A DNA stretch of 64,000 nt from a virus, in the IMG/VR virus record IMGVR_UViG_3300027763_002462, positions 45,456 to 109,455 of that record; one strand, given 5' to 3'. The notes beneath the pieces are model-generated. The model did not search any database. It was not told where the DNA came from and saw only the letters and a program-made list of their open reading frames with translations. The position numbers were made by a program, and so were the translations under genes. Positions 14,346 to 47,862 of this stretch are shown here, one piece after another (the stretch's first letter is position 1; every line of letters begins with the position of its first letter).

Positions 14346-14681
14346 ATGGCAATACTAAAAACAATACCATCAAGAAAAGTAATCAATGGGTTTGTCGTAG
14401 ACACCTCAGAAATTTCTATAGTATCTGAAAAAGATTATACAACAAACGGAGAGTCTTGTATTGTAATTAAAGATGTTTCTGAATCTACAGTTATTTTAAA
14501 TTCTAAAACAACAGACCATATTGTGGTTAAATCAATGACAAGACTTACAATCAAACCAGACATCGGTAAAATCGATGAAGACTATGATGAAATAGTTGCT
14601 GATAAGTATGCTTGTATTGAATTTAGATTTATGAGTGGAAATTGGTATATCCTATCTTCAGACGGTTTGAAGCAATCCTAA
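14346..14681 (+). CDS. Small beta-rich late protein of unknown function
   Basis: A 111-residue protein with alternating strands and a closing 'FRFMSGNWYILSSDGLKQS', an ending often seen in small phage surface or fibre-tip domains. It starts 4 nt after the gp13-like stop, so it is co-transcribed with the neck gene and probably structural. It overlaps the end of the DNA polymerase gene by 24 nt, tail to tail. I recognise no family. Confidence 0.65.
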   Translation: MAILKTIPSRKVINGFVVDTSEISIVSEKDYTTNGESCIVIKDVSESTVILNSKTTDHIVVKSMTRLTIKPDIGKIDEDYDEIVADKYACIEFRFMSGNWYILSSDGLKQS

Positions 14682-17945: not shown

Positions 17946-19619
17946 TTATGATTCTTTACGCAGCTCTCTGTTATAATGTTCGAATCTATCGTGTTCTGTT
18001 GGTGTCATAAGTAACAACCCAGGGTACAACTCATCTTTTTTAACTAACTGATACATATGACTCATCCATGTTTGTTCAAACGGATGTGCCCATGTTGTAT
18101 CTAAGAACATTTTTTTATTTCCTGGTCTACTAACAATCTGAGGCCAGTTACAATAATAAACGTCACCAACTGCATATGGAACACCCTTGTGGGATAACAC
18201 AGCATTGAATTCTGTTTTTGGAGCATTAGGGTCAAGTCCCATTTCTGGAAGTCTTGGTTTACCTGGCCAAAACTCATCTCTTACATGTTGAGGAACATTG
18301 TACCAAGCCCACTGAGTTCCATTGTCTCCATAAAACTCAGAATAATTCATCTTTAAAAAATCAAAATTTTCTTTCTTAATAATTTCTAAAGACTTTGTAT
18401 ATAAATTGGAAACATATCGATTGAATCCATTCCTACAAGATGTCCCTTCATTTGGAAAGAAGAACATATCGTCCTCAAAGAATAAATAATAATCTAAATC
18501 AGTTTTATCAAAATGTTCGGCAATCCATTGTCTACCACCACATATACCTAAATTATCTTTTTTAATATGTTCAAAATCAAATTCTTTACAAATTACCGAG
18601 TATTCCTCGGTAGTTGACAAATCACTTGAATTATCTAACAAAAACTTTTTAGTTTTTAGTATGTAGTCCTTATCATATGCCAACATAGAATCAATAAGAG
18701 TTCTAAATTGTTTTGGACTATTGAATGTAATAACATACAATCCAACTTTGTTTGGGTCCAAAGTATTGATAACTTTTTCTGTATTTTCACTTTTAACTTT
18801 GAGCTCATCGTTTTTTAAATTTTCAAAAAATGTTCCGATTAAACCATTTGATTCAATTTCAAAATAGTTAATCATATCCGAATGTTTATAAGCCATAATA
18901 CTGAAAATTGATTCTTCAGTACCCATGTATCCATCTTCTAATGTTGATTTAAGTAACCCGTAATAAATTCCGTTAATATCACTTATTGTATGTTTTGGTC
19001 CACCAAAAAATCCTCCTCTGGAAACTTTGGTAACCTTGGCACCAGCAAGAGCATTTAATTTACCATAATTAAATCCATGTATTTCAGTTTCAGCACCGTA
19101 TGGAAAACTAACAAATGAAAATTTTGAAATATATTTTGATAAATTATTTAATACTTTATCATGAGTAAAGTATCCTGGATGAACTGTATTCGTTAAACCA
19201 CCATCAATCCAAAACATATATTCCGAATCAAATTGGTCCATTATTTTGGCGTCATGTAATAAAAAAACTTTAGACATAACCAATGGATTATAATTGTCTA
19301 ATCTTGCTTGAGTAGATTCTTTTAACCAACCAACTTGATTATACCATTCTGGATTTGTTCTTATTTTTTGAATCATTGGGAAAAACTCTGAATTAGTAAA
19401 CCAACTTAATGGTCTTACAATAAACTGAGTGGTTTTAGAACTTCTTCTTTCAAAAACAAATTCTTTTAATTCTTCGTCTCCAAAGATTATTAAGTTTTCT
19501 TCAACCTCTAAAAGTTTTTCAAACTTATCTAAATAATGTTGATAAGGTCTTGACCATCCTTCGGTCAGTTCACCTCTTCCAATATCCCAAATACCTGTTA
19601 CTAATGTTATATTACTCAT
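17946..19619 (-). CDS. Two-domain glycosyltransferase: HtrL/YibB-like domain plus GT-A domain
   Basis: A 557-residue fusion. Residues 1-270 match the HtrL/YibB family (opening TLVTGIWDIGRGEL...W.RPYQHYLDKFEKLL, then PLSWF, YNPLVMSKVFLL, EYMFWIDGG), whose members sit in LPS loci and are thought to transfer sugars. Residues about 290-557 form a GT-A-like domain with YYLFFEDDMFFF as the metal-binding acidic motif. It is the last of four minus-strand sugar genes and overlaps its neighbour by 8 nt. The acceptor is unknown; fibre proteins transcribed upstream are plausible candidates. Confidence 0.7.
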   Translation of the reverse strand: MSNITLVTGIWDIGRGELTEGWSRPYQHYLDKFEKLLEVEENLIIFGDEELKEFVFERRSSKTTQFIVRPLSWFTNSEFFPMIQKIRTNPEWYNQVGWLKESTQARLDNYNPLVMSKVFLLHDAKIMDQFDSEYMFWIDGGLTNTVHPGYFTHDKVLNNLSKYISKFSFVSFPYGAETEIHGFNYGKLNALAGAKVTKVSRGGFFGGPKHTISDINGIYYGLLKSTLEDGYMGTEESIFSIMAYKHSDMINYFEIESNGLIGTFFENLKNDELKVKSENTEKVINTLDPNKVGLYVITFNSPKQFRTLIDSMLAYDKDYILKTKKFLLDNSSDLSTTEEYSVICKEFDFEHIKKDNLGICGGRQWIAEHFDKTDLDYYLFFEDDMFFFPNEGTSCRNGFNRYVSNLYTKSLEIIKKENFDFLKMNYSEFYGDNGTQWAWYNVPQHVRDEFWPGKPRLPEMGLDPNAPKTEFNAVLSHKGVPYAVGDVYYCNWPQIVSRPGNKKMFLDTTWAHPFEQTWMSHMYQLVKKDELYPGLLLMTPTEHDRFEHYNRELRKES

Positions 19620-20493
19620 AAATTCTATTAAATTCTTCTAATATTCTATAGAAGCTTTTATTGTTTAAGAAGAGTTCCTCATCAACTCCTCTAGGTGCGT
19701 TGTCTCTACACCACCAAATATCGAAATGTTTTCTAACAAATAAATCTAAATGGTTAAAATACATTAAAGTCATAACGTGTTCTTCATGTGGTATACCCTT
19801 ATCTTCAGTTATTATTTTTTGAACATAGTCTTCAAATAAATTAACAACCTCATCCCACTTATCTCTGTGTCCACCAAACATACCACCAATCACATGAATA
19901 CTTCTATCGTATTCAGTATACCATTTTCTATCAACAGTGCCCGACCAATAGTTTCTATCATTTTCTTTACCTAAAATTAAAAACTTATCACTTGTATCCT
20001 CAATAAGATTCTTTAAAAAATCATTATTAAACAAACTACTTTCATAATATCTTTGTTGAATATGTTCATTTGTTAGATACTTTAGGGGAATCAATCCACA
20101 ATGGGATAATCCAGCATCAATCCAATAATAATAATCATAAGATTTATCTTCGTTCCACCACCAATGAAACTTACTGTATTGAACCTCAACACATCTGTCT
20201 CCATTTTTAGTTTCCTCAATATTCTTATATTGATTAATCAAATCTTTAAATTTGGTATTTCCAATATCAAAAACCTGAAACTTAAGTTTGTCTTTTGGAA
20301 TTGAGTATTCGACATAAAAAAACTCTTCTAATGAAGGTAATTCTCTATCTGAAGTGTAACATAGGAAATCCGCGTCTGTCATCTTTAAAAGTGACAACAA
20401 ACTATACCTATAATGTCCTCCTCTATTTGGTCTACCTCCAAATTCAGTACCATATAGGTCACTGTAAATTGATGTTATAAATTTAACTGACAT
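19612..20493 (-). CDS. HtrL/YibB-like glycosyltransferase
   Basis: A 293-residue protein related in plan to the N-terminal half of the next gene: KFITSIYSDLYG start, a mid-protein YYYWIDAGLSHCG (acidic metal-binding-type motif), and HVIGGMFGGHRDKWDEVV followed by EEHVMTLMY. It lacks a second GT-A domain. Overlaps of 8 and 11 nt with neighbours show it belongs to the same operon. Function as a sugar transferase is inferred from family context. Confidence 0.6.
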   Translation of the reverse strand: MSVKFITSIYSDLYGTEFGGRPNRGGHYRYSLLSLLKMTDADFLCYTSDRELPSLEEFFYVEYSIPKDKLKFQVFDIGNTKFKDLINQYKNIEETKNGDRCVEVQYSKFHWWWNEDKSYDYYYWIDAGLSHCGLIPLKYLTNEHIQQRYYESSLFNNDFLKNLIEDTSDKFLILGKENDRNYWSGTVDRKWYTEYDRSIHVIGGMFGGHRDKWDEVVNLFEDYVQKIITEDKGIPHEEHVMTLMYFNHLDLFVRKHFDIWWCRDNAPRGVDEELFLNNKSFYRILEEFNRIYE

Positions 20494-21226
20494 AATAAAA
20501 TTCTTTATGTTCCCCGTTATCTTTCATTTCTTGAACTTTATATTGGTCCATAAATTCTCTAGGGATTTTAGTTGGACACCACCTATTCCAATTATAGGTT
20601 TGCATGTACCAATTACTATACATACCTTCAGATATGTTTGAATAACCAGCTTTCTGTGGTGCTATTGGTAAAATTGGACAGTAACTTTGATGTTTCTGAA
20701 CTATAAATTTAAAAGTATAATCATCTAAGGCGTGAAAATAATCTCCACTTGTAAATGCTGTTAACGCAATATCAAAAATAGAATCGTAGATAGATTCATC
20801 ATATATAACCATATTAGCTGCGTAGATACCACGAGCGTTTTCATCCGCTTCAGGTAAATTAGTCATATCTAATAATAAATTACATTTATCACTAACATTA
20901 ATATCTCTATTTTGAGTTGGCCCTAAATTAAACATTGCAAATTCTAAATCAGGACAAGTGTCTTCTATTTTTTGAAGTAGGTCTTTTGCGTAAGGCATAA
21001 CACCACAATCATCCTCAATAATCATTACACGAGGATAACTTCTTTCTTTTGCAATCTTAATAATTTCAAAAGTTGATTTGGTTATACCCATATAAGAATT
21101 AGTATCTATCGCAGGAAATCTTTCAAAATCCCATCCGAGATAATTCATTTCCTTTGTAATTTCTTCTAACCTATCAGGTCGTCTATCCAAATTTACAATA
21201 AACTTAGGGATTTCACTAAATTTCAT
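20483..21226 (-). CDS. GT25-family glycosyltransferase
   Basis: A 247-residue protein. The start IPKFIVNLDRRPDRLEEITKEM is the hallmark of family 25 ('NLDRRxDR'), and MIIEDDCGVMP is the metal-binding DxD-type motif. HALDDYTFKF fits the acceptor-side acidic residue. GT25 enzymes transfer galactose or glucose to LPS core sugars, or in eukaryotes to collagen hydroxylysine. It overlaps the next gene by 1 nt. A collagen-like fibre is encoded 4 kb upstream in the same direction, but that protein has no lysine in its repeat. Confidence 0.8.
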   Translation of the reverse strand: MKFSEIPKFIVNLDRRPDRLEEITKEMNYLGWDFERFPAIDTNSYMGITKSTFEIIKIAKERSYPRVMIIEDDCGVMPYAKDLLQKIEDTCPDLEFAMFNLGPTQNRDINVSDKCNLLLDMTNLPEADENARGIYAANMVIYDESIYDSIFDIALTAFTSGDYFHALDDYTFKFIVQKHQSYCPILPIAPQKAGYSNISEGMYSNWYMQTYNWNRWCPTKIPREFMDQYKVQEMKDNGEHKEFYYVS

Positions 21227-22491
21227 TAACTAACAACATTGTGATTTAATTGGCCAGTTATCCTATCACACCATCCTTTTGATTCTGAGTGAGGCCAAAC
21301 TACCCAGTAAGAAGGTAATTCTGTTGTTGGGAATTCTCTCCAAACTTTACAATACTTGTCAGGGTCTCTCATAAATCCTGCAATTTCATTCTTGTCGGCA
21401 TCTTTTCTATATAATGTTTCATCCGAACCATTATGGAATGCAACAACCCAAAAATCATAATCAGTTTCAGTAACTTGTGAGTATCCAATATCAATACAAT
21501 GTTTGAATATAGTTGAGAATGAATTTTTCCAATCCTCTTCAGTTTCAAAATTATAAGGACTTGGTGGATATTGTTTGTCCAAACAATGTTTGTCTACCGC
21601 TCTTTTTTCAAATAATAAACCTGAATACTTCTCGTATTCTCTTAGAGTTCTAACAGTACCAAATCCGTATTGCCCATCATGGCCTACTTGAGTTTCACCA
21701 TCCATACCAAATAATTTTCTATTTGTTAAGTGAGAGTGAGTATTTTTTTGACCCCAAGTTTTATCATCATCCCATTGTTTTGTTCTACCTTTACGAGTGT
21801 ACTCGTGATAAACTACAGGAATGTGTGGGTGGAATAAATCGTAACCCCATGTGTATGCTCTTGCTGCAATTGAAATCTCTTCACCATGAAAGTAGTATTC
21901 AGGGTTATGTTGAACTTCTTTTGAAAACTCTCCTAATGTAAAACAGAAGTGAGCTGAATAGAATCTTGACGTAACAGGTTTTTTCATTTCTCTCCAACCT
22001 GGAATTGTTTCAGGTAAGAAGAATACCGCACCTTCAGGAATGAATCTATCAAAGGCCATTCTCCAAGCATCTTGTGCTCTACCTGCTGGTTCGTTATCAG
22101 GGTCAAAGGAAGGTACATATCCCGTAAGTAGAGGTTTCTTGTACCCATCCTTTTGTAGACCCTTTATCATCTTGATTAGGATATCATCCCAATCTTTAAC
22201 AAATCTCATGTGAGAGTCAATTTGTAATGTATATGATTCTCCATCATAAAGTTGTTGTGTTAGGTTTCTTGCCCAACAAACTCCTTTTGCATCTTGATAT
22301 GGAATGTCTAAGATTTTAAATCTTTTGTCGTCTCTATATTCATCTAAGTTATCAAACCCGTCTTCCTCTGCGAATTGTCTTGCAATTGAGAATACTAAAT
22401 TTTTAGGTTTCTTGGCGTTTTCCAACATGTCTTTTATTGTTGGTATTAACTGTGGGTCTCTGTAAGACGCAATTTGAACGAATATTTTCAT
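21226..22491 (-). CDS. GlcNAc-transferase family (GT60-like) glycosyltransferase
   Basis: A 421-residue protein. Its N-terminus IFVQIASYRDPQLIPTIKDML and the motif LQIDSHMRFVKDWD (DxH in place of DxD), then EEISIAARAYTWGYDLFHPH and VVYHEY, match the Skp1 GlcNAc-transferase family (PF11397 as I recall). Those enzymes add GlcNAc to hydroxyproline or serine/threonine of proteins, a point in favour of protein glycosylation here. The C-terminal about 100 residues (YDFWVVAFHNGSDETLYRKDA...) are an extra domain. First gene of the minus-strand sugar operon; a terminator lies upstream. Confidence 0.75.
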   Translation of the reverse strand: MKIFVQIASYRDPQLIPTIKDMLENAKKPKNLVFSIARQFAEEDGFDNLDEYRDDKRFKILDIPYQDAKGVCWARNLTQQLYDGESYTLQIDSHMRFVKDWDDILIKMIKGLQKDGYKKPLLTGYVPSFDPDNEPAGRAQDAWRMAFDRFIPEGAVFFLPETIPGWREMKKPVTSRFYSAHFCFTLGEFSKEVQHNPEYYFHGEEISIAARAYTWGYDLFHPHIPVVYHEYTRKGRTKQWDDDKTWGQKNTHSHLTNRKLFGMDGETQVGHDGQYGFGTVRTLREYEKYSGLLFEKRAVDKHCLDKQYPPSPYNFETEEDWKNSFSTIFKHCIDIGYSQVTETDYDFWVVAFHNGSDETLYRKDADKNEIAGFMRDPDKYCKVWREFPTTELPSYWVVWPHSESKGWCDRITGQLNHNVVS

Positions 22492-22515
22492 TAATGTCTA
22501 TTTTGTATTAAAAAT

Positions 22516-22547
22516 AAAAAACCCTCCACAAAAGTAGAGGGTTTTTT
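22516..22547. terminator. Terminator between the fibre and glycosyltransferase genes
   Basis: An 11-bp stem of six A/T and five G/C pairs (AAAAAACCCTC / GAGGGTTTTTT) with a 10-nt loop. It is followed by T-rich sequence on both strands and ends the fibre transcript on the minus strand. Confidence 0.75.
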
Positions 22548-22571
22548 GAAATATATTATTTTTAATTATTT

Positions 22572-23618
22572 TTAACAACCTGATGGGTCGACACCTGTAA
22601 TCTCACCTGAACCACCTGTAACTAGATATACCGCAGTTCCATTTGAATAATAACCATTTATAACTGGTGTTGATAAACCTGAGTTGTAGTATAAGAATTC
22701 TCCAACATTTGGACCAATTCCTCCTGATACAGTTCCGTAGATTGTGTTAGGTGCTCCACTGAAATCAATACAAGCTAAGTTTGCTGTACTACCTGTACCT
22801 AAACTATATTGATAATAAGTTCTTGTTGGTGTGGGCGATGGTGTATGTGTTGGAGTTTGTGTATTTGTAGGTGTATTTGTTGGAGTAGGTGTTAAAGTAG
22901 GACAAAGAGTGTAAGAAAATGCAACTACATCACCATCAGATTGAATTTCAACTACGTAGTTGTTATATTCCAAATATCCTGCTCCTGCAGGAGATGACCC
23001 GTCGATATTAAGACTGAAATTGTTTACTAAATCAAAACTAGAATTATTACCATACACATTGATTAATGAACCTCCAATATTTCCACAAGCATTTAAACTA
23101 GTCGAACCAGAATAAACGCTACTAAATAATATACGAGACAATGTTGGTGTTGGAGTTGATGTTGATGATGGTGTATCTGTTGGTGTTTGACTTGGTGTAA
23201 TACTTGGAGTTGGAGTTGGAGTTACAGCGGCAGTGCCTGTATTAGTTGGAGTCGGAGTCACAGCAGCAGTTCCTGTTGGTGTATTTGTAGGAGTTGATGT
23301 ATTAGTTGGTGTTTGAGTATTAGTTGGAGTCGGAGTCACAGCAGCAGTTCCTGTTGGAGTATTACTTGGAGTAACACTTGGAGTTGGTGTTGGAGTCGCG
23401 GTTTCACTAATTGGCGGGAAAGCTCCTTGATTAATCAAAGAAACTGAACTAGTATAAACAGGAGAAATTGTATATGTCCCGTTAATTACCCAAATATTCT
23501 TTGTTTGATTTGGATTTAATTCAACTTGATACTCCCAAAGAGAGTCATCACATCTTCTATAATTAAAGTTCACAATTGTGGAACCTGTATTTGTTAAGGT
23601 ATATTTGCTACATGCCAT
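22572..23618 (-). CDS. Fibre protein with mucin-like Thr/Pro linkers and repeated Cys-ended modules
   Basis: A 348-residue protein: an N-terminal domain (1-75), a Thr/Pro-rich linker (about 75-160; PTPTNT/GTAAVTPTPTN repeats), a globular module (about 160-240, ending FSYTLC), a second short PT linker, and a closing module ending VDPSGC. The modules share a plan with those in the next two genes: an aromatic start, a Cys after about 15 residues, an IYG/VYG turn and a final Cys. Such modules on stalks suggest receptor-binding or decorating fibres. Function is inferred. Terminator downstream, late motif 19 nt upstream. Confidence 0.7.
   Translation of the reverse strand: MACSKYTLTNTGSTIVNFNYRRCDDSLWEYQVELNPNQTKNIWVINGTYTISPVYTSSVSLINQGAFPPISETATPTPTPSVTPSNTPTGTAAVTPTPTNTQTPTNTSTPTNTPTGTAAVTPTPTNTGTAAVTPTPTPSITPSQTPTDTPSSTSTPTPTLSRILFSSVYSGSTSLNACGNIGGSLINVYGNNSSFDLVNNFSLNIDGSSPAGAGYLEYNNYVVEIQSDGDVVAFSYTLCPTLTPTPTNTPTNTQTPTHTPSPTPTRTYYQYSLGTGSTANLACIDFSGAPNTIYGTVSGGIGPNVGEFLYYNSGLSTPVINGYYSNGTAVYLVTGGSGEITGVDPSGC
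22802..23402 (-). repeat. Thr/Pro-coding tandem repeat DNA
   Basis: Imperfect 6- to 12-nt units coding for PTNT, PTPT and TGTAAV-type motifs in two blocks flanking a globular module. They share near-identical units with 23.9-24.6 kb, 25.1-25.2 kb and 26.2-26.6 kb, so recombination between genes is possible. Confidence 0.8.
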
Positions 23619-23637
23619 CTTAAATGTTATTTATCTA

Positions 23638-23644
23638 ATAAATA
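23638..23644 (-). promoter_or_regulatory. Late-type TATTTAT motif for the 348-aa fibre gene
   Basis: Sense reading GTAGTATTTATTAG, 19 nt before the ATG at 23618. Confidence 0.55.
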
Positions 23645-23687
23645 CTACGATTTTCTCTAATTTTATAAAGTAATCTTATTTTATTTC

Positions 23688-24797
23688 TTAACAAGGATTT
23701 ATGTATGTCACAAATCCATCTCCACTTACAATTATATAAGTACTAACACAAGTAACATCTGTGTCGCCACCAAGAACTGTGAAGCTATAATCAAACCCAC
23801 TACAATCTTTACCAACAAAAAGAGTGTCAGTAGTTCCGCCATAAAATGCATATCTTTTACATAAAGGACCTGACGGTGTTTGTGTTTGAGTTGGAGTGTT
23901 AGTTGAAGTTTGAGTGTTGGTTGGAGTTTGAGTATTGGTTGGAGTTTGAGTATTTGTTGAAGTTTGTGTGTTGGTTGGAGTTTGAGTATTAGTCGGAGTG
24001 TTAGTTGGCGTTTCAGTATTGGTTGGAGTGTTAGTTGGCGTTGATGTATTAGTTGGAGTTGGAGTACTTGTTGGTAATAAAGAACAAAGGGTGAAATATC
24101 CAACTGTATTACCAGACAAATCAAGTTCAACCAAAACTCCTAAATAATTATAATATCCTGCAATATTTCCAATGATTCCGCCATTTGACGTATTAAAGAA
24201 ATAACTATTTTGGTCAAAAATTTGTTCTACACCATATATAGAGGTGCTATCTGAACCGTTACACGCATCGTATGGACTTGTTCCTCCACTTAAACAACTA
24301 AATTCATATAATATAACTCCTGAAGGAGTTACTGTTGGAGTTGCGGTTTGAGTTGGAGTCTGTGTTTGATTTGGAGTATTAGTTGGCGTTTCTGTATTAG
24401 TAGGAGTTAAGGTATTAGTAGGTGTTACTGTTGGTGTTTGTGTACTAGTTGTGGTGTTTGTAGGAGTTGTACTTGGAGTATTAGTTGGAGTTCCTGTATT
24501 AGTTGGAGTATTAGTTGGAGTCACCGTTGGAGTTGATGTTACCGTTGGTGTTGGAGAAGTTTCAGTTGGTGTTGGTGTTGGTGTTGGTGTTGGTCCTAAT
24601 ATCGATATACTATATGTGTAAGCATATAATGGAACGTAACAATTATATGTTCCGTAATAATAATCTGCAACATAACTAAATGGAAAAACTTGATTACCTA
24701 AGTCAACGGAAGTCCCTCCTGTTTGAGGAAGAAACGTAACTTCGGTTGTTAATCCGCTTAAACTTACACTTGAAATTAATACACCACAATCTGCCAT
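23688..24797 (-). CDS. Fibre protein with two mucin-like linkers
   Basis: A 369-residue paralogue-like neighbour of the 348-aa fibre. Order: N-terminal beta domain (1-75), PT linker (about 75-165), a module (about 167-240, CNGSDSTSIYG ... VGYFTLC), a second PT linker (about 245-310, many PTNTQ units) and a terminal module ending VTYINPC. Two Cys-ended modules per chain repeat the design seen in the flanking genes. Thr is the most common residue in the linkers, giving dozens of potential O-glycosylation sites. An unusual out-of-frame ORF over the repeats is an artefact. Confidence 0.7.
   Translation of the reverse strand: MADCGVLISSVSLSGLTTEVTFLPQTGGTSVDLGNQVFPFSYVADYYYGTYNCYVPLYAYTYSISILGPTPTPTPTPTETSPTPTVTSTPTVTPTNTPTNTGTPTNTPSTTPTNTTTSTQTPTVTPTNTLTPTNTETPTNTPNQTQTPTQTATPTVTPSGVILYEFSCLSGGTSPYDACNGSDSTSIYGVEQIFDQNSYFFNTSNGGIIGNIAGYYNYLGVLVELDLSGNTVGYFTLCSLLPTSTPTPTNTSTPTNTPTNTETPTNTPTNTQTPTNTQTSTNTQTPTNTQTPTNTQTSTNTPTQTQTPSGPLCKRYAFYGGTTDTLFVGKDCSGFDYSFTVLGGDTDVTCVSTYIIVSGDGFVTYINPC
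23878..24593 (-). repeat. Thr/Pro-coding tandem repeat DNA (two blocks)
   Basis: Blocks at about 23878-24075 and 24335-24593 of GGAGTT/GTATTGGTT-type units coding for PTNTPTNTQ-like sequence, interrupted by a globular module. Confidence 0.8.
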
Positions 24798-24801
24798 GTT
24801 A

Positions 24802-24808
24802 ATAAATA
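24802..24808 (-). promoter_or_regulatory. Late-type TATTTAT motif 4 nt before the 369-aa fibre start
   Basis: Sense reading GAGTATTTATTAACATGG, ATG at 24797 after 4 nt. Confidence 0.6.
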
Positions 24809-24830
24809 CTCAAAAATTTTATTTTATCTT

Positions 24831-25400
24831 TTAACATACCCCAACATTAATAATTTGATTACCGCTAAGTTGAATAAACTTAGCTCCGTTTGAGATTGTA
24901 AAATTGGCATTAATTGGAGGGATTGTTAAAGATTGGTTACCATATACATAATCACCCACTTCTAAATTTTCAAAAAGTTTTGGAATGTAGATTGTTACGT
25001 TTGCTGGATTTGCAATCATATTAACAGATTGACAGACATTTTGATACCAACCACCTGTTCTTAAATTATACATATAAACTGTTGTTGGTGTAACCGTTGG
25101 TGTTGTTGTAGGTGTTGGAGTTGGAGAAGTTGAGGTTGGAGTCGGTGTTACAGAACTTTGAGTTGGTGTTGACGTAATGGTTGGAGTCGGTGTTGTTGAA
25201 GGACATAAGCCCACTAAAGATATTGTAAGAGGAGCTCCATAACTTTCAACAATTAAATCCTTAGCACAAACATATTGTACTTCTAACGGGTTAATTGGTG
25301 AAACACTAATTATATCCGTACAACCAGTCCATCTATAATATCCTTCTTCGACATTATTGTAGTTGGTTATAATAAAATAGTTACAGTCGGTTGTATACAT
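24831..25400 (-). CDS. Short fibre protein with one mucin-like linker
   Basis: A 189-residue protein. N-terminal domain (1-70), a single PT linker (about 70-108; STPTQSSVTPTPTSTSPTP-type), and a C-terminal module (MYNLRTGGWYQNVCQSVNM...IINVGVC) of the same Cys-ended plan as its neighbours. It starts 1 nt before the end of the upstream collagen-like gene, so it is co-transcribed with it. Probably a fibre or decoration; the precise role is unknown. Confidence 0.65.
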   Translation of the reverse strand: MYTTDCNYFIITNYNNVEEGYYRWTGCTDIISVSPINPLEVQYVCAKDLIVESYGAPLTISLVGLCPSTTPTPTITSTPTQSSVTPTPTSTSPTPTPTTTPTVTPTTVYMYNLRTGGWYQNVCQSVNMIANPANVTIYIPKLFENLEVGDYVYGNQSLTIPPINANFTISNGAKFIQLSGNQIINVGVC

Positions 25401-25401
25401 T

Positions 25402-26145
25402 TTAACTTATTTTCAAATATCCATAATTAACCGTAACACCTGATACTGTATTGTTTTGAATACCGAATACAAATGTATTTGTTGATGTAACAACTGTTGA
25501 AGCGGTGGATATTGCACCTGCAGTTCCTATAATCTGTGCAGGTATACTTGTAAACAATATTGGACTACCCCCACCAGTATAATTCCATGCATACTGAACA
25601 CCAATTACTGGTACATTAGTATTACTAACACTTACTGTGGCATTATAAACTATTATACCATTTGGTATATTTCCAAGAACCCATAAGTTATACGTATCAT
25701 TAATATCAACTGTAAAACTGTAGTTATTAGTTCCTGGAGTCACCGTCCAACTACCTGTAAAACCAGATAAACCTGAAATTCCACTTGTACCAGAACTACC
25801 TGAAGAGCCTGATGTTCCTGAAGTTCCACTTGAACCGCTTGTTCCTGAAGTTCCACTTGAGCCAGATGTTCCTGAAGAACCTGAGATTCCGCTAGTTCCT
25901 GATGAACCGCTTGTACCAGAACTACCATTAATTCCGCTAGTTCCTGATGTTCCGCTTGAACCCGATGAACCACTTGTTCCTGAGCTACCGTCTGTTCCGC
26001 TAGTTCCTGATGTTCCTGAAGAACCTATTAATGTTTCTTTTAAAACTTTAAAAGTTTCAGTTAAACCGCTATTATCCATAACAAGATAAGCACCCGTGGT
26101 GTCTCCTGTGTATAGTGGTAATGCACTGATTTTTGTATTTGCCAT
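25402..26145 (-). CDS. Collagen-like fibre protein with proline-free Gly-X-Y repeats
   Basis: A 247-residue protein. After an N-terminal attachment-like segment (MANTKISALPLYTGDTTGAYLVMDNSG), residues 41-130 are about 30 strict Gly-X-Y triplets, mostly GSS and GTS, with GTD, GIN, GIS and GLS breaks and no proline. A C-terminal globular domain (SWTVTPGTNNYSFTV...GVTVNYGYLKIS) follows, as in phage collagen-like fibres whose head domain sets the trimer register. X and Y are nearly all Ser or Thr, so glycosylation might replace hydroxyproline in stabilising the triple helix. Start codon chosen at 26145. Neighbour fibre genes are in the same operon. Confidence 0.75.
   Translation of the reverse strand: MANTKISALPLYTGDTTGAYLVMDNSGLTETFKVLKETLIGSSGTSGTSGTDGSSGTSGSSGSSGTSGTSGINGSSGTSGSSGTSGISGSSGTSGSSGTSGTSGSSGTSGTSGSSGSSGTSGISGLSGFTGSWTVTPGTNNYSFTVDINDTYNLWVLGNIPNGIIVYNATVSVSNTNVPVIGVQYAWNYTGGGSPILFTSIPAQIIGTAGAISTASTVVTSTNTFVFGIQNNTVSGVTVNYGYLKIS
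25757..26026 (-). repeat. GSS/GTS-coding tandem triplet repeat
   Basis: About 30 nine-nt units, imperfect, coding for Gly-Ser/Thr-Ser triplets. Codon usage for Gly, Ser and Thr is varied between units, which limits DNA-level slippage. Confidence 0.75.
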
Positions 26146-26158
26146 TTTAATCTATTTT

Positions 26159-28582
26159 TTATGTTATATCTATTTCAATATTATCGTTATTTTCTGCGGT
26201 AGCAACTGAATCATCTTCAAATAATAAGAAGTATGGTTCAGTGGGTGTTACTGTTGGAGTAGGCGTTGAAGTTGTTGTTGGAGTTAAGGTTTCAGTTGGA
26301 GTATTAGTTGGTGTTTCTGTAATTGTAGGAGTTGGAGTAGGTGTTTCTGTTTCAGTAGTAGTAGGAGTTGGAGTTTCTGTATTAGTTGGAGTATTAGTAG
26401 GCGTTTCTGTATTAGTTGGAGTTTGAGTTGGTGTATTAGTAGGAGTTTCCGTATTAGTAGGTGTGTTGGTAGGTGTTTCAGTTGGAGTTGGTGTTTGAGT
26501 TTCTGTTGCAGTTGGTGTTAATCCAACAGTAGCCGTAGAAGTTGGAGTTTCAGTGTTAGTAGGGGTTGATGTATTTGTTGGTGTTGATGTGGTAGTTGGA
26601 GTGTTAGTAGGGGTTGATGTTGGACATGGGTATAAAGAAGAAAACAAATCATTACATGGTACCATCAAATATCCTAAATCATTACACGGTACTGAGATAT
26701 ACAACAAGTCGTTGTTTGGAATAAAAATTCTACAATTAAGACAATTAGGGTCTAATAAATTATATCTATTCTTTAATAATTTAAAGTTATGTCTAATTTG
26801 AGAAGCGTTTAATGGTTCTGTATACATTCTAAATGCACTAACATCACCAATCATACTACCACCAAAAATTTCTTCTAACCTTATTTGAGTTGTAAGACCT
26901 GAGTATTCAGTATGTTCTAAGTCATAATCTGTTAAACATTCAGGGTCTTGTTGATATGTAATACCACTTAACTCTGCGGGACACCCTGCAGAGAATGTTA
27001 AGTTGTCGTGAAGACCTTGAGTACCACCACCAACTGAAATATTATATCCAACTCCAATTTGTTTTTCTTTTTCAACATTAAGAAGTCTTGGAATTATTTC
27101 CTCGAAATTTTCAGCCACCAAAAATAATTTACCATTAACATAAAACTTAAGAGTACCTAATCTATATTTTTGTTCTTCGGTCCAAATATCAGTAAACGTA
27201 ACAACCTCTGTTGAAGGTGGAATATATCCTGGGTCATGTGTTATTGGAGGTTCAACTAATGTTACACTTCTATTCTCTAATGTTGCAAAATATACATCAT
27301 CAACTAACAAACCAAGTCCTCCTTTTTCATATAGGTCACAGGTATCAAACCATTCCTTTCTTTGAAATACGGCATCTATTTGAACCCAATGTTCAACGTT
27401 AGGATAAGTAGTCCCACTACAATCATCAAATATTCCTCTCGTAGAACACCATTCGGTTACAGATGTTCCAGTGTGGTAAGTCAATCCTGTAAGACAAGTT
27501 CCACTATGTTCACACCCTCCTGTTATTCTATATGTCTTAACACATAGTCTTGGACTACCTGTATCTCCACTTAATCTTAAAGACAACGCATTTGACACAC
27601 CATCATATAACGGGTCCTTTTCAGGATATTTGGCATGTGACTCACAATCACAAGGGCAACCACAAGTACAATGAGTTATCGTACCTCCCGATGGTTGATA
27701 CACCTGTAGACATTCAGATGAAGTATTCGCAGTACTTGCACATCCACAAGTATGCATACAAGTTAACCCTGAGGTCACTCTTGTATACCCTGTATCTTGT
27801 TTTGGTTCACCATCAGCATAGTGATAGAATTTGTTTTCGGCTCTCGCTCCCATGTAGAAAAAGGTTCCCTTATTATCAGGATACCTTGAATTAAGTCCGA
27901 CAGAAGTATCTCCTGTCCATCTGTATCTTAACATAAATTCAGCTGTCCACCCTAACGATACTCTTTGAGGGAACACCTGATAGTCGTATCCTGGTAACTT
28001 ATAAAAACCTTGAAAAAACCCTCCGTTTAATCTGGCAAAATAACCCACAGGATTACCATCTGTGGCGTAATACATATCATAGGTATAAGAGTTGTCGTTC
28101 CACAATCTATTTTCTGAAGTTGTGAAACCAGTGATAGGGTGCATTTTCATTCTCCTATCATATTTATATCTACTAAATCTGTCTGACTCTGTTTCGTAAA
28201 GACCAGTTGTGATTTCAATAGTCTCACCTGACATGTTTTTAACAAGTCCATTGTCAATACCTGTCAAACCAACATCACATAACTCAGTAACAATGAGACA
28301 AAAATTAGGGTCTGTATCAGTCGGATTCCAATAGTTTTCAGATACAATAGTATCATCATCAAATGTACACGAATTTGTTTGACATTTTGTAGTCCCTGAA
28401 CTATTAAAGTCAAATTTAAAAGGCATTCTATTACCATTATCCTCACCAATTAACAATGGTGAAAAAATAACTTCTTGGTCGTAGTCTTTCTCATCTGACG
28501 CGAGACAAATGTCCGTGACTTCGTTGACAGGTTTAATACCCCATCGTCTAAAATTATATTGATTTATATTTTGATATGCCAT
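26159..28582 (-). CDS. Large fibre/adhesin protein, lectin-like domain with mucin-like tail
   Basis: An 807-residue protein. The first about 200 residues include an attachment-type opening ([14 protein letters not shown]). Residues about 200-640 read like a concanavalin/LamG-type beta sandwich ([78 protein letters not shown]). A Cys-rich insert lies near 275-330 ([16 protein letters not shown]). Then about 665-780 is PT-rich mucin-like sequence and a short acidic end. Probably the main receptor- or surface-binding fibre. First gene of the fibre operon, late motif 9 nt before the ATG. Confidence 0.7.
26244..26617 (-). repeat. Thr/Pro-coding tandem repeat DNA in the adhesin gene
   Basis: Repeated GTTGGAGTTT/GTATTAGTTGG-type units coding for [12 protein letters not shown]. 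Similar DNA occurs in the three downstream fibre genes. Confidence 0.8.
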
Positions 28583-31387: not shown

Positions 31388-32599
31388 ATGTCAAAAATCA
31401 AAGTACTCGTTGTACCATCCGATAGAACAGGAGTTGGTAAGTTTAGGTCAGTAGACCCGCACATCTTTTTACAAAATCTCTATCCTGATGATTTTCACGT
31501 CGATATCGTTTATGAACCACCATATGATGATGTTAACTATTGGACCCAATATCAAATAGTTTCATTCCATAGAAGTATTGGGCCCGATTTTGAAAAGGCC
31601 CATCGTCTTATTCAAATGTTAAACTCATTAGGAGTTATAACTGTTTGTGATATTGACGATTATTGGATGCCAGGTAAAGAACACCCAATCCACGATATTA
31701 TTAAAGTTCACAAGATTAATGAAAAAATTACTGCAAACTTAAAAGTTGCAAAGTATGTTACAACCACAACATCTTTATTTGCTGATGAAATTAGGAAATT
31801 AAACAAGAATGTTGTTGTATTTCCTAACGCAATTAATCCAAACGAATCTCAATTTAAAGAACCAACATTAGAGTCTGATAGACTTAGAATTGGTTGGTTA
31901 GGAGGTTCTTCCCACTTACATGATATTCAATTATTAGACCAAGGGTTTGGTAAGATTTTTTCTTTAAAAGATAAACTTCAATATGTGTTATGTGGATTTG
32001 ACACTAGAGGTAGTGTAACTGAAATTAACGCACAAACAGGAGAACAAACTAAACGTAATATTCTTCCTCACGAAACTGTTTGGGCTCAGTATGAAAAAAT
32101 ATTTACACAGAACTATTCAATTGTGTCTGATGAATATAAAAAACATTTGATTAACTATAATCAAGAAAGTTATACTGGTAATCCTGACGAACCATATTTG
32201 AGAGTTTGGACTAAACCTGTAACATCATACGCAAAAAATTATGCTAAATTTGACGTATCCTTATCACCAATTAAAAACACAATGTTTAATAGAATGAAGT
32301 CTCAGTTGAAAGTTATTGAAGCTGGATTTTATAAGAAAGCATTAATAGCATCTGACTTAGGTCCTTATACTATCGATTTAAAACATTGTATGAAAAATGG
32401 TGAGTTTGTTGACGGTAATGCTATGTTAGTAAATGAAAATAGAAATCACGCTGATTGGCCAAAATTTATTGAGAAGTTGGTAAAAAATCCTAACTTAGCA
32501 AAAGATATGGGAGAAAGGTTATACGAAACCGTAAAGGACAAGTACGACCTTAATGTTGTAACAAAAACAAGAGCAGAATTTTATAAATCAATCATATAA
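31388..32599 (+). CDS. GT4-type (GT-B) glycosyltransferase
   Basis: A 403-residue protein. N-terminal Rossmann-like half (IKVLVVPSDRTGVGKFRSVDP, VCDIDDYW) and C-terminal half (LRIGWLGGSSHLHDIQLLDQGF, SLSPIKNTMFNRMKSQLKVIEAGFYKKALIASDLGPY) with the E-x7-type nucleotide-binding region 'KVIEAGFYKKALIAS'. It transfers a sugar from an NDP-sugar; substrate unknown. First gene of the plus-strand sugar run. Confidence 0.75.
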   Translation: MSKIKVLVVPSDRTGVGKFRSVDPHIFLQNLYPDDFHVDIVYEPPYDDVNYWTQYQIVSFHRSIGPDFEKAHRLIQMLNSLGVITVCDIDDYWMPGKEHPIHDIIKVHKINEKITANLKVAKYVTTTTSLFADEIRKLNKNVVVFPNAINPNESQFKEPTLESDRLRIGWLGGSSHLHDIQLLDQGFGKIFSLKDKLQYVLCGFDTRGSVTEINAQTGEQTKRNILPHETVWAQYEKIFTQNYSIVSDEYKKHLINYNQESYTGNPDEPYLRVWTKPVTSYAKNYAKFDVSLSPIKNTMFNRMKSQLKVIEAGFYKKALIASDLGPYTIDLKHCMKNGEFVDGNAMLVNENRNHADWPKFIEKLVKNPNLAKDMGERLYETVKDKYDLNVVTKTRAEFYKSII

Positions 32600-33300
32600 T
32601 GATAAACATACCTTTAACCAAGATTTTATTTTTAGATATCGAAACTGTCGGTATTCAACCAGATTGGGCATCTCTTGAGTCTAATAGACCTGAGCTGGCA
32701 TACCAATTTAAAAATTACCATGATTGGTTTCAAAAAAGATTTCCTGAAGATGCGGACAAACCTGTTGGAGATATGTTTGTAAACAGAGCGGCATTAGTTC
32801 CTGAGTTTGCAAGAATTGCTTGTGTTAGTGTTGCTTTTGTTACAGACAAAGGTGAAACTAAAATGCAATCATTCAGTGACCCTGACGAAAAAAAACTATT
32901 GGAGGAGGTTCAAAAACTGCTTAAACGAGTTGGAGAATTAAACTTTTTTTTATGTGGTCACAATGTTAAAGGATTTGATATTCCAATGTTGGCAAAAAGA
33001 ATGATGATGAATGGTATTCTTCCTCCAAAAATATTACCAGGTCATGACACTAAACCATGGGAAATTAAAGCTCTTGATACTAAAGAACTTTGGCAATACG
33101 GTGGATATGGTTCTATAGCATCATTAGAACTAATGTGTGTTTGTTTAGGTGTTGAGTCTTCTAAAAACATGGAGGTTACAGGTAATAAAGTTCACGAAGC
33201 GTTTTGGGTTAAAAAAGATATCTCAGGTATTGTTGAATATTGTGAGAAGGACGTATCGGTTTTAATCGACGTAATTAACAAACTATTAAAATTAAAATAA
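32599..33300 (+). CDS. DEDDy 3'-5' exonuclease (PolB-exonuclease-like)
   Basis: A 233-residue protein with the four acidic motifs of DnaQ-like exonucleases: LFLDIETVG, GHNVKGFDIPML, and YCEKDVSVL (DEDDy class). It resembles the stand-alone exonuclease family related to the PolB proofreading domain (PF10108 as I recall). It degrades single-stranded 3' ends, perhaps in replication or host-DNA scavenging. It overlaps the preceding gene by 1 nt and is an odd neighbour for sugar genes. Confidence 0.8.
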   Translation: MINIPLTKILFLDIETVGIQPDWASLESNRPELAYQFKNYHDWFQKRFPEDADKPVGDMFVNRAALVPEFARIACVSVAFVTDKGETKMQSFSDPDEKKLLEEVQKLLKRVGELNFFLCGHNVKGFDIPMLAKRMMMNGILPPKILPGHDTKPWEIKALDTKELWQYGGYGSIASLELMCVCLGVESSKNMEVTGNKVHEAFWVKKDISGIVEYCEKDVSVLIDVINKLLKLK

Positions 33301-33917
33301 TGCAACAAGGTAACGAAATAAAACCAGAGGTTTGGGCACAAGTTTTAGAACAATTTGAAAAGATAAAATCAGATTCAGGAATAGAACCTGAGTTAGATTA
33401 TATAAAACAATTAGAAGATATGTTGGGAATGTCAGTTGAAGAAATGAATAGAGAGACTGAAATAACCCTTAGAACTAAACGTCTTGGTGTTGAATTAATA
33501 CACGAAGATGCGAAATTTCCGTCTTACGCTTACCCATCTGATTCAGGTTTTGATTTATATTCAACAATAGATTATAAACTCTCCGCGTTTGGAAGAGCAT
33601 TAATTCCAACAGGTCTTAAGTTATCTATTCCTGATGAATATGAAATACAAGTTAGACCTAAAAGTGGTTTAGCTATAAACCAAGGATTAACAGTACTAAA
33701 TACACCAGGAACTGTGGATTCAGGTTATAACGGAGAAATTAAAGTGATTATGTTTAACACAAATAATCATGAAGTGATTGTAACCAAAGGAATGAAAATT
33801 GCTCAAGCTGTCTTATGTCCTGTTGTTAATGGTACTTTTGTACAATTAGAACAGATTGATAAAATTGAAGATAAAGACAGAGGAGATAAAGGATTTGGAA
33901 GTACGGGAATAATTTAA
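33300..33917 (+). CDS. dut: dUTPase with an N-terminal extension
   Basis: A 205-residue protein. The C-terminal about 145 residues carry the five trimeric dUTPase motifs: SDSGFDLYS, VRPKSGLAINQGLTVLN, GTVDSGYNGEIKV, KIAQAVLCPV and RGDKGFGSTG. The enzyme hydrolyses dUTP to dUMP and keeps uracil out of DNA. The first about 55 residues are an acidic helical extension not found in the usual about 150-residue enzyme. 1-nt overlap with the exonuclease gene. Confidence 0.92.
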   Translation: MQQGNEIKPEVWAQVLEQFEKIKSDSGIEPELDYIKQLEDMLGMSVEEMNRETEITLRTKRLGVELIHEDAKFPSYAYPSDSGFDLYSTIDYKLSAFGRALIPTGLKLSIPDEYEIQVRPKSGLAINQGLTVLNTPGTVDSGYNGEIKVIMFNTNNHEVIVTKGMKIAQAVLCPVVNGTFVQLEQIDKIEDKDRGDKGFGSTGII

Positions 33918-33921
33918 TTAT

Positions 33922-35550
33922 ATGATTACAATAGCATACTCAACAAGAGAGAGTAAACCAGAGTTTACAGAATATCTAAAAAAGAGTTCAGGTTTTAAAA
34001 AACTTGAGGTCATTGAAAAAGTTAACAACGGTGAGAAGTCTCTTGCCCAAGTTTATAATGAAGTCTTGTCAGAATCAAAGACTGACATTGTTGTGTTTTG
34101 TCATGATGATATATATTTTGATACAAATTCTTGGTATAACAAATTATTAAAACATTTTGAAAAAAGTGATTTTGGTATTCTTGGTATGGCAGGAACAACT
34201 CAAATGCCAAGTAGTGGAATGTGGTGGGAAGACAGAAGAAAGATGGTTGGCATTGTTAACCATGAAAGTGATGGAAAGAAATGGGAATCAAAATACTCAG
34301 AGTCCTTAGGTAACTCAATTATAGAAACAGTTGTTGTTGACGGTCTATTCATTGCAATTGACAAAAGAAAAATTAAAAAGAATTTTAACGAAGACTTTAA
34401 AGGGTTTCACTTTTATGATATTCCTTTTTGTTTTGAAAACCATATTGAAGGAGTTAAAGTTGGTGTTATTACTAATATTAGAATTACTCACAGGTCAATC
34501 GGTCAAACTAATGAACAATGGGAAGAGAACAGAAAATTGTTTGAATCAAAATACGCAAAAAATTTACCTGTTAAACTTAGCTACGACTCTCAAAGAAGAA
34601 TTAAAGTTTTAATATCATCTTTGTTTTTTAGAACTTTTACTGGTTCAGAATTATATATTTTTGAACTTGCAAAGAATTTAATTAAACAAAACTGTGATGT
34701 TACTGTTATGTCCCAAATAGGTGGGCCATTAACTGATATGGCAAAAAGATTAGGTATTAAATGTATATCATTTGAAGAAGCTCCTGGTTTTAAACTTGGT
34801 GATGGTAAATGGGGATTTAATACACCTGAAGGATTTAAAGTATCAACTGAAAATGTAATGTATCGTGTTTCTGAAGTTAACTTTGATATTATTCATATGC
34901 AACATAAACCTGTTGCCGAAAGAATGATTCAGTTTTATCCTGAGATAGATAAAATCTATTCTATTCATTCTGAAGTTATAGAATTAGAAGACCCTATCAA
35001 ACACGAATCAATTAAAAAGTATATTGCAATTAGACCTGAAATTAAGGACCACATTGTAGATAAATTTGAGATACCCGAAGAACAAATTGATATTATTTAT
35101 AATCCAATTGATAACGATAAATTCAAGCCAAAACCTTTAGTTAAAACAGAAAACTCTGTGTTATTTGTTGGTACCATAGATTACCTAAGAAAAGAGACCA
35201 TCTTAGATTTAATGGAAAGAACAAAAGAAGAAGGTAAAGAACTTTGGTTAGTAGGAGAAGATAAAGGAAATTATCTACAACAAGTTTTATTTGAACCTCA
35301 TGTAAAATATTTCCCTCCTACTTGGTCTGTAGAAAATTTCATATATAGATGTGAAGAAACTGCAGGAATTCAATTAGGAAGAACAACTATCGAAGGATGG
35401 ATGTGCGGAAAACCGAGTTGGATTTATAAAGTAGATTCAGGTGGATTTATTTTATCAAAAGAAAAATTCGAACCTCCTGTAGACGTAGAGAAATACTTTT
35501 CCTCTAACGTCGCAAAACAAATAAAAGAAGAGTATCAAAAAATCCTTTAA
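33922..35550 (+). CDS. Two-domain glycosyltransferase (GT-A plus GT-B)
   Basis: A 542-residue fusion. Residues 1-215 are a GT2-like domain (ITIAYSTRES, LAQVYNEVLSESKTDIVVFCHDDIYFDTNSW with the acidic HDD motif). Residues 225-542 are a GT4-like domain (LISSLFFRTFTGSELYIFELAKNL, VLFVGTIDYLRKETILDL, LGRTTIEGWMCGKPSWIYKV). Such two-headed enzymes add two sugars in turn, or one domain is regulatory. Acceptor unknown. Confidence 0.75.
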   Translation: MITIAYSTRESKPEFTEYLKKSSGFKKLEVIEKVNNGEKSLAQVYNEVLSESKTDIVVFCHDDIYFDTNSWYNKLLKHFEKSDFGILGMAGTTQMPSSGMWWEDRRKMVGIVNHESDGKKWESKYSESLGNSIIETVVVDGLFIAIDKRKIKKNFNEDFKGFHFYDIPFCFENHIEGVKVGVITNIRITHRSIGQTNEQWEENRKLFESKYAKNLPVKLSYDSQRRIKVLISSLFFRTFTGSELYIFELAKNLIKQNCDVTVMSQIGGPLTDMAKRLGIKCISFEEAPGFKLGDGKWGFNTPEGFKVSTENVMYRVSEVNFDIIHMQHKPVAERMIQFYPEIDKIYSIHSEVIELEDPIKHESIKKYIAIRPEIKDHIVDKFEIPEEQIDIIYNPIDNDKFKPKPLVKTENSVLFVGTIDYLRKETILDLMERTKEEGKELWLVGEDKGNYLQQVLFEPHVKYFPPTWSVENFIYRCEETAGIQLGRTTIEGWMCGKPSWIYKVDSGGFILSKEKFEPPVDVEKYFSSNVAKQIKEEYQKIL

Positions 35551-36353
35551 TGAATAGAATTATTGACTATGAAAACTTATCCATAAAAATACAAGATTGG
35601 ATTAAGTCTTACGTAAATGAAAATGGAATATCTACCTTAGTAGTAGGTGTTTCAGGTGGAATAGATTCAGCAGTAGTATCAACATTATGTGCTGAAACAG
35701 GAATACCAACTATTGTTGTTGGAATGCCAATAAACTCAAGTCCTGAAAATACAAAGTTATCTGACTTACAAATTTCACTTTTAAGCGCAAAATATGATAA
35801 CGTTGAGGGATACTATATAGATTTATCTCCTGTATTCGAATCATTTAAATCTCACAAAGCATTTGATAAAAGGTTTAACTCTGAACTTGGATTTGCAAAT
35901 ACAAAATCAAGATTACGGATGGTGTCTCTTTATCAAATAGCGGCTTCATCTGGTGGTATTGTAATCGGTACAGGAAATAAAGTTGAAGACTTCGGTGTTG
36001 GATTTTATACTAAGTACGGTGATGGAGGAGTAGATATTTCCCCAATCGCAGATTTATATAAATCAGAAGTTAGAGAGTTAGGTAAGTTATTAGGAGTACC
36101 TCAAGATATAATTAACGCTGAACCTACAGATGGTTTATGGGAAGACAATAGAGTTGACGAAACGCAAATAGGTTCAACTTATGATGAGCTTGAGTGGGCT
36201 ATGGAATATGGTATGAATAAGTGGTCAGAACAACTAGAGTTAACAGAAAAAGAAAAAACAATACTTACAACTTACGCAAACTTCAACACAAAAAATAAAC
36301 ATAAAATGGTTTCAATACCAATTTTTGATTTAAAAGAAAATAATGTCATATGA
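35550..36353 (+). CDS. nadE: NH3-dependent NAD+ synthetase
   Basis: A 267-residue protein. The PP-loop SGGIDSAVVSTL, GTGNKVEDFGVGFYTKYGDGGVDISPIADLYKSEVRELGKLLG and EPTDGLW are NadE signatures, and no glutaminase domain is present, so ammonia is the nitrogen donor. It turns deamido-NAD into NAD+. Nearby NAD-using enzymes (UDP-glucose dehydrogenase, epimerase, MDR dehydrogenase) may create demand; countering NAD-depleting defences is another possibility. 1-nt overlap with the previous gene and 4-nt with the next. Confidence 0.92.
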   Translation: MNRIIDYENLSIKIQDWIKSYVNENGISTLVVGVSGGIDSAVVSTLCAETGIPTIVVGMPINSSPENTKLSDLQISLLSAKYDNVEGYYIDLSPVFESFKSHKAFDKRFNSELGFANTKSRLRMVSLYQIAASSGGIVIGTGNKVEDFGVGFYTKYGDGGVDISPIADLYKSEVRELGKLLGVPQDIINAEPTDGLWEDNRVDETQIGSTYDELEWAMEYGMNKWSEQLELTEKEKTILTTYANFNTKNKHKMVSIPIFDLKENNVI

Positions 36354-40927: not shown

Positions 40928-40928
40928 T

Positions 40929-41600: not shown

Positions 41601-41604
41601 TATT

Positions 41605-45215: not shown

Positions 45216-45216
45216 T

Positions 45217-45825: not shown

Positions 45826-45826
45826 T

Positions 45827-47856: not shown

Positions 47857-47862
47857 CATATA

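What the first reader, a model, noticed from the sequence alone, without database searches (positions are those of the whole stretch)
25402..26145. Collagen-like fibre with no proline in its Gly-X-Y repeat
About 30 consecutive triplets are almost only GSS or GTS. Collagen helices usually need Pro or charged pairs for stability; a Ser/Thr-only repeat should be weak unless modified. A GT-rich genome context suggests O-glycosylation as stabiliser, as known for threonine-glycosylated collagen in deep-sea worms.
Basis: partly seen in the sequence, partly recalled or inferred. Interest (0 to 1): 0.6.

Follow-up and report, generated by a model that had tools for sequence, protein, structure and literature searches.

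The report
Proline-free collagen-like phage fibre stalk
A virus of aquatic bacteria carries a surface protein whose stalk repeats like collagen but contains no proline, it belongs to a large family of such virus stalks, and it lies beside a sugar-attaching enzyme set that probably decorates these surface proteins.

Summary
The 247-aa minus-strand gene at 25402-26145 has 31 in-register Gly-X-Y triplets (13 GTS, 11 GSS), no proline and one charged residue. It is not an oddity of one gene. In 198 non-redundant runs from environmental virus contigs (11,579 triplets), 179 lack proline, runs reach 549 triplets, and X and Y are segregated: X = Thr/Ser/Ile/Val/Leu, Y = Ser/Asn/Asp. A collagen-type stalk is the best reading. 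GTS blocks share one unbroken register with classical GPQ or GPP triplets, and the same C-terminal domain sits on GTS stalks, other collagen stalks, or none. So the array is a swappable, length-variable stalk. The glycosylation idea is partly supported. A GT60-type glycosyltransferase lies four genes downstream. Its relatives neighbour Pro-Thr repeat proteins in 76/80 close and 66/80 diverged loci, against 0/160 controls, but neighbour Ser/Thr collagen arrays in only 11/80 and 12/80. Of 40 GTS records sampled, 12 hold GT60. Thr is in X, whereas the known Thr-rich bacterial collagens carry it in Y. No triple helix or glycan has been shown. New variant of a known kind.

The parts
25402..26145 (-). 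collagen-like fibre protein, 247 aa (N-domain + GTS/GSS array + C-domain)
   Evidence: ORF; PF01391 52.5 bits; PHROG tail-fibre matches such as phrog_5073 over residues 41-228
26026..26145 (-). N-terminal domain, residues 1-40 (MANTKISALPLYTGDTTGAYLVMDNSGLTETFKVLKETLI), probable virion anchor
   Evidence: conserved with and without the array; anchoring role inferred
25747..26025 (-). 31 Gly-X-Y triplets, residues 41-133, no proline; the stalk
25402..25746 (-). C-terminal domain, residues 134-247 plus stop; predicted beta-sandwich tip
   Evidence: 300 viral loci confirmed in one scan; no Pfam or PHROG family; AF2 pLDDT 66.8, pTM 0.62; weak tail-fibre fold matches only
26159..28582 (-). 807-aa protein with a Pro-Thr (PTNTPT) repeat, upstream in the cluster
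24831..25400 (-). Pro-Thr repeat protein, 189 aa
23688..24797 (-). Pro-Thr repeat protein, 369 aa
22572..23618 (-). Pro-Thr repeat protein, 348 aa
21226..22491 (-). GT60-type glycosyltransferase (PF11397; phrog_24687), conserved DSH motif; candidate polypeptide O-GlcNAc transferase
20483..21226 (-). GT25-like glycosyltransferase (PF01755)
   Evidence: found beside GT60 in 68 of 80 loci
19612..20493 (-). unassigned protein inside the GT cluster (called HtrLa in scripts), possible glycosyltransferase
   Evidence: found in 72 of 80 loci; no Pfam match; role inferred from position
17946..19619 (-). HtrL/YibB (PF09612) protein with a C-terminal glucosyltransferase-like stretch
   Evidence: found in 79 of 80 loci

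Best explanation
A phage fibre protein in three parts: a small N-terminal domain that attaches it to the virion, a proline-free Gly-Thr/Ser-Ser stalk, and a C-terminal beta-sandwich tip. Three copies assemble through the tip and the stalk zips into a collagen-type triple helix that holds the tip away from the particle. The stalk is a cassette: in close relatives it is absent, 14, 19, 31, 37 or 42 triplets long, and in distant relatives it is another collagen repeat. It is encoded within a cluster of Pro-Thr (mucin-like) surface proteins followed by a GT60-type polypeptide glycosyltransferase and further sugar enzymes, which most likely O-glycosylate the Pro-Thr repeats on Thr and may also decorate the Ser/Thr-covered stalk. 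Shown: sequence anatomy, family-wide composition rule, register continuity with classical collagen triplets, modularity, gene linkage. Inferred: trimer and triple helix, virion location, glycosylation.
For: Unbroken Gly-every-third across the family. GTS/GSS/GTT blocks run in one register with GPQ/GAQ collagen triplets in a single 353-triplet run of a GT60-bearing relative (L154), and with GPP clamps in Microcystis phage Mel-JY01. The same C-domain sits on GTS, GATG, GYSG, GPTG or no stalk, with at least 3 (parsimony 8) GTS gains or losses on its tree. PF01391 and PHROG tail-fibre matches. GT60 linked to Pro-Thr proteins in 76/80 and 66/80 loci, to Ser/Thr collagen in 11/80 and 12/80, against 0/160 controls for both. 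GT60 biochemistry: PMC8724618, PMC6939170. Virion glycoproteins in XacN1, which has a GT60 relative (PMC5852040).
Against: No structure, trimer or glycan is demonstrated. The composition is poor for an unmodified triple helix: no Pro, no Lys-Glu/Asp pairs, and Thr in X with Ser/Asn/Asp in Y, which rank low in host-guest data as I remember them. Most GTS arrays have no relative of this window's glycosyltransferases within 5 kb. GT60 of XacN1 and RAS14 has neither repeat type beside it. The C-domain fold is only moderately confident and matches nothing at E<=1e-3.
Confidence: 0.6

Rival explanations
1. The Ser/Thr array is a triple helix that is stable only when O-glycosylated by the phage's own GT60 pathway.
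For: GT60, GT25 and an HtrL-type protein in the same gene cluster; Ser/Thr collagen arrays beside GT60 in 11/80 close and 12/80 diverged loci, none beside the MCP or PhoH controls; in L039 and L060 GT60 stands near a GTS gene in other lineages.
Against: Only 12 of 40 GTS records contain GT60 and long records lack it; GT60 is linked far more strongly to Pro-Thr proteins; Thr is in X, not Y.
Confidence: 0.2
2. The array folds as polyglycine-II-type helices (as in phage S16 and PP01 gp38 tips) rather than a collagen triple helix.
For: Strict segregation of X (Thr/Ile/Val/Leu) and Y (Ser/Asn/Asp) would suit a bundle with two different faces; PGII domains occur in phage tips (PMC12892980).
Against: PGII bundles need short helices joined by turns, whereas these runs are uninterrupted for up to 549 triplets and continue in register into GPQ/GPP collagen triplets.
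Confidence: 0.1
3. The array is an unstructured Gly/Ser/Thr spacer that merely separates two folded domains.
For: Composition resembles flexible GS linkers; in close relatives the array is wholly absent.
Against: Gly at every third place is kept without a slip over hundreds of triplets, X and Y obey different rules, and the codons have diverged, so the pattern is under selection.
Confidence: 0.15
4. The clustered glycosyltransferases act on DNA or on host lipopolysaccharide, not on phage proteins.
For: One cluster protein matches T4 glucosyl-HMC glucosyltransferase weakly (E 4e-4) and the cluster precedes polB; GTs of marine T4-like phages have been read as LPS modifiers (PMC7029224).
Against: No thymidylate synthase / dCMP hydroxymethylase homologue in the record (the record may be incomplete); near-constant placement of GT60 beside Pro-Thr proteins; characterised GT60 enzymes act on polypeptides (PMC8724618).
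Confidence: 0.25

Closest known systems
Phage and prophage collagen-like tail fibres (e.g. EPclA of E. coli O157 prophages; PF01391, phrog_1806, phrog_5073)
   Same: Gly-X-Y stalk between an N-terminal virion domain and a C-terminal domain, stalk lengths changing in whole triplets, modular flanks
   Different: EPcl has Pro in about half of X positions and charged X/Y residues (PMC3368898); here Pro is absent, X is Thr/Ser/Ile and Y is Ser/Asn/Asp; the C-domain is an unrelated, unnamed family
BclA of Bacillus and Clostridium spores
   Same: Thr-rich bacterial collagen, glycosylated (PMC8968730), C-terminal beta-sandwich trimer domain (from memory)
   Different: BclA is a GPT repeat with Pro in X and Thr in Y (from memory); only a marginal sequence match to 1wck (E 0.035)
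Mimivirus collagen with L230 hydroxylase/glucosyltransferase
   Same: a virus encoding both a collagen-like protein and collagen-active sugar enzymes
   Different: L230 modifies hydroxylysine (PMC4691112); this array has no Lys, and the local enzymes are GT60/GT25/HtrL types
GT60 polypeptide alpha-GlcNAc transferases (Trypanosoma cruzi mucins, Dictyostelium Skp1)
   Same: PF11397 family above cut-off, DSH motif, Thr-rich Pro-containing repeat proteins next door
   Different: phage-encoded, expected to act in a bacterial cytosol; activity untested
Gp38 polyglycine-II tips of T-even phages (S16, PP01)
   Same: Gly-rich phage fibre element
   Different: short PGII helices with loops, not a long uninterrupted triplet array

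Membership tests
Collagen-like (Gly-X-Y) proteins, PF01391 | uninterrupted Gly at every third residue, PF01391 over its cut-off | tested here: met
   31 triplets; 52.5 bits against 27.2
Collagen-like (Gly-X-Y) proteins, PF01391 | right-handed triple helix of three chains | not testable with these tools
   only single-chain prediction is available; indirect support from register continuity with GPQ/GPP triplets
Collagen-like (Gly-X-Y) proteins, PF01391 | imino-acid richness (typical of known members, not strictly defining) | tested here: not met
   0 Pro in 31 triplets; Pro 0.1% of X and 0.3% of Y over 11,579 triplets
Thr-glycosylated collagens (vent-worm cuticle collagen, BclA) | Thr in the Y position, usually after Pro | tested here: not met
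   Thr is 59% of X and 2.9% of Y
Thr-glycosylated collagens (vent-worm cuticle collagen, BclA) | sugar on the repeat | not testable with these tools
   candidate enzymes present
GT60 / PF11397 polypeptide alpha-GlcNAc transferases (the gene at 21226-22491) | family profile over cut-off and conserved DxH-type metal motif | tested here: met
   224.9 bits against 21; D92-S93-H94 invariant in five aligned phage sequences
GT60 / PF11397 polypeptide alpha-GlcNAc transferases (the gene at 21226-22491) | transfer of GlcNAc to Thr/Ser or hydroxyproline of a polypeptide | not testable with these tools
   linkage to Pro-Thr proteins only
Polyglycine-II bundle (gp38-type) | short Gly-rich helices separated by turns | tested here: not met
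   runs uninterrupted to 549 triplets

The most novel reading that the evidence does not exclude
Aquatic phages have a distinct class of proline-free collagen with its own X/Y code (Thr/Ile in X, Ser/Asn/Asp in Y), used as interchangeable virion stalks, and in one T4-like group these stalks and mucin-like Pro-Thr virion proteins are O-glycosylated by a phage-encoded GT60 pathway in the bacterial cytosol.
Probability: 0.3. Interest if true: 0.75.

Novelty: new variant of a known kind. Interest (0 to 1): 0.52.

Why it matters
Collagen stability is normally explained by Pro/Hyp in X and Y or by Lys-Glu/Asp pairs. Hundreds of consecutive triplets with neither, under a strict X/Y code and joined in register to ordinary collagen triplets, form a natural data set for asking what a triple helix really needs. 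Nature also supplies near-isogenic controls: almost the same N and C domains with no array, 14, 19 or 31 triplets. The constant pairing of a GT60 enzyme with Pro-Thr virion-type proteins makes phage protein O-glycosylation, rarely shown in phages, directly testable.

Tried and rejected
tblastn of the whole protein, its C-domain and its N-domain against 50,697 phage records found nothing, in part because low-complexity filtering hides the array; a DNA search of the array found the 735-kb LR756501/LR756503 and Microcystis phage Mel-JY01. The Flavobacterium 'immuto' phage, a relative by capsid protein, has no GTS array. No PDB sequence relative of GT60 or of the C-domain profile. The many PDB collagen matches reflect the Gly pattern and are not evidence of homology. 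Recent slippage of one DNA unit was rejected by codon diversity. GT25 as a collagen (hydroxylysine) galactosyltransferase was rejected for this array because it has no Lys. The idea that GT60 is tied to the GTS array itself was rejected in favour of the Pro-Thr proteins. No GT2-family match was found in 17 of 28 records that were searched (27 GTS-type records plus this one), but fragments cannot prove absence.

Full report
What is there. The window is part of a 109,455-base virus record (G000) of a T4-like myovirus: Gp23 capsid protein at 62283-63968, a tail-sheath protein at 4762-7974 and a B-family DNA polymerase at 14658-17456. The gene of the finding, 25402-26145 on the minus strand, encodes 247 aa: a 40-aa N-terminal domain, residues 41-133 as 31 uninterrupted Gly-X-Y triplets, and a 114-aa C-terminal domain. 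The array has 13 GTS, 11 GSS, no proline and one charged residue. Shuffling the protein 20,000 times never gave more than 8 triplets in a row. The Pfam collagen model matches at 52.5 bits.

It is a family trait. The first scan of IMG/VR found at least 199 confirmed relatives among its candidates. Over 198 non-redundant runs of at least 12 triplets (11,579 triplets; selected as Ser-rich in Y and Ser/Thr-rich in X), 179 have no proline and the longest has 549 triplets. X is Thr 59, Ser 16, Ile 10, Val 5, Leu 3 percent; Y is Ser 69, Asn 12, Asp 10, Thr 3 percent; Pro is 0.1 and 0.3 percent. The Ser and Thr figures are partly built into the selection, but the segregation of Ile/Val/Leu (X) from Asn/Asp (Y) and the absence of Pro are not. 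Other bacterial collagens have 19-31 percent Pro in X and 32-48 percent Thr in Y (PMC8968730), so Thr is on the other side of the triplet here. The same record carries a second array of 289 triplets at its far end. A scan of cellular genomes, limited by row number, confirmed only three weak relatives. DNA search of cultured or named phages found such arrays in the 735-kb LR756501 and in Microcystis phage Mel-JY01.

Why a collagen stalk. (i) Register: in L154, a close relative by its GT60 gene, one uninterrupted 353-triplet run alternates GTS/GSS/GTT blocks with GPQ-GAQ-GAT blocks of ordinary phage collagen; in Mel-JY01, GAP-GPP-GRP precedes and GPA-GPP-GPP-GPP closes GTS runs. (ii) Interchangeability: the C-domain, confirmed in 300 viral loci, sits on GTS arrays, on GATG, GYSG or GPTG arrays, on other repeats, or directly on the N-domain. 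Close relatives with nearly the same N and C domains have no array or 14, 19 or 31 triplets; with another N-domain, 19, 37 or 42. On the C-domain tree the GTS label changes 8 times by parsimony, at least 3 forced by well-supported branches. (iii) PHROG matches are mostly tail-fibre families. The C-domain is predicted as a beta-sandwich with moderate confidence and has no significant fold match; the best viral matches include phage tail fibres and a Pithovirus collagen-repeat protein. Trimerisation, triple helix and virion location remain inferred.

Sugar enzymes. On the same strand the gene order is: 807-aa Pro-Thr protein, collagen-like gene, three more Pro-Thr proteins, GT60 (PF11397, 2.7e-66), GT25, an unassigned protein, an HtrL/YibB-type protein, a small ORF, polB. 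GT60 enzymes are polypeptide alpha-GlcNAc transferases of mucin-type O-glycosylation in trypanosomes, and of Skp1 in Dictyostelium and Toxoplasma (PMC8724618, PMC6939170). The DSH motif is invariant among five phage sequences aligned. In 80 viral loci with close GT60 relatives, 76 have Pro-Thr repeat frames beside the enzyme, and the four exceptions have under 750 bases upstream on the contig; 80 capsid-gene loci and 80 PhoH loci have none. In a second set of 80, of which 78 are below 80 percent identity to the window's GT60, 66 have Thr-Pro repeats and 12 have Ser/Thr collagen arrays, again 0 of 160 controls. These loci are related by descent, so the counts are not independent events, and the capsid-gene loci are on average shorter. 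XacN1, whose ORF334 is this enzyme's relative, was reported to have at least two glycoproteins (PMC5852040), although neither repeat type lies beside its GT60.

Does sugar stabilise the GTS stalk? Not shown. In favour: co-residence in the cluster, and Ser/Thr collagen beside GT60 in about 14 percent of loci. Against: only 12 of 40 GTS records contain GT60; in most GTS loci no relative of this window's glycosyltransferases lies within 5 kb; the Thr are in X; Mimivirus-type collagen glycosylation needs Lys, which is absent. From host-guest work as I remember it, Thr in X and Ser, Asn or Asp in Y are poor for an unmodified helix, so either long length and low temperature suffice, or the helix is modified, or the fold departs from classical collagen. 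This is the open question. The rival targets of the enzymes, DNA or LPS, are less likely given the near-constant Pro-Thr neighbours and the absence of a thymidylate-synthase-type hydroxymethylase in this record, but the record may be incomplete.

Verdict. The protein is best filed as collagen-like by sequence pattern, a proline-free variant used as a swappable phage stalk. The glycosylation reading is plausible for the cluster, best supported for the Pro-Thr proteins, and unproven for the stalk.

Noticed in passing
window 21226-28582 and its relatives: GT60 is almost always beside Pro-Thr (mucin-like) repeat genes in T4-like aquatic phages (76/80 close and 66/80 diverged loci against 0/160 controls); this looks like a phage mucin-type protein glycosylation cluster in its own right.
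   Followed up: partly
window 31388-50522, plus strand: A second sugar island: GT4-, GT2-, GT10- and GT11-like (fucosyltransferase) genes, UDP-sugar dehydrogenase, NAD synthase, DegT aminotransferase, hexapeptide transferase and epimerase.
   Followed up: no
window 11661-13199, plus strand: A 512-aa ORF carries a full Fe/Mn superoxide dismutase (PF00081 and PF02777) plus about 280 further residues, unusual for a phage.
   Followed up: no
L087 3..3449 (other end of the same record): A second collagen-like gene with 289 proline-free triplets in a 4- and 7-triplet superperiod (built of GTS, GSS, GTD, GSN, GID), lags 4, 7 and 11.
   Followed up: partly
L510 739-2298 (Microcystis phage Mel-JY01 PP395634), L087 1-2859, L039 4928-5335: GTS arrays leave an antisense frame open that reads VPEVPELPSVP...; in Mel-JY01 the deposited CDS is this antisense shadow, and the sense collagen frame (at least 1016 aa) is mostly unannotated.
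   Followed up: yes
window 25402-25746: The C-terminal domain is an unnamed family (NIPNGI...NAT...NVPVIG motif) confirmed in 300 viral loci, absent from Pfam and PHROGs, attached to many kinds of stalk.
   Followed up: partly
LR756501 (735-kb phage), locus L511: Two ORFs of over 2,000 aa with proline-free GTS arrays of up to 424 triplets.
   Followed up: no
window 17946-19619: The C-terminal part matches the T4 beta-glucosyl-HMC-alpha-glucosyltransferase family weakly (phrog_842, E 4e-4).
   Followed up: partly
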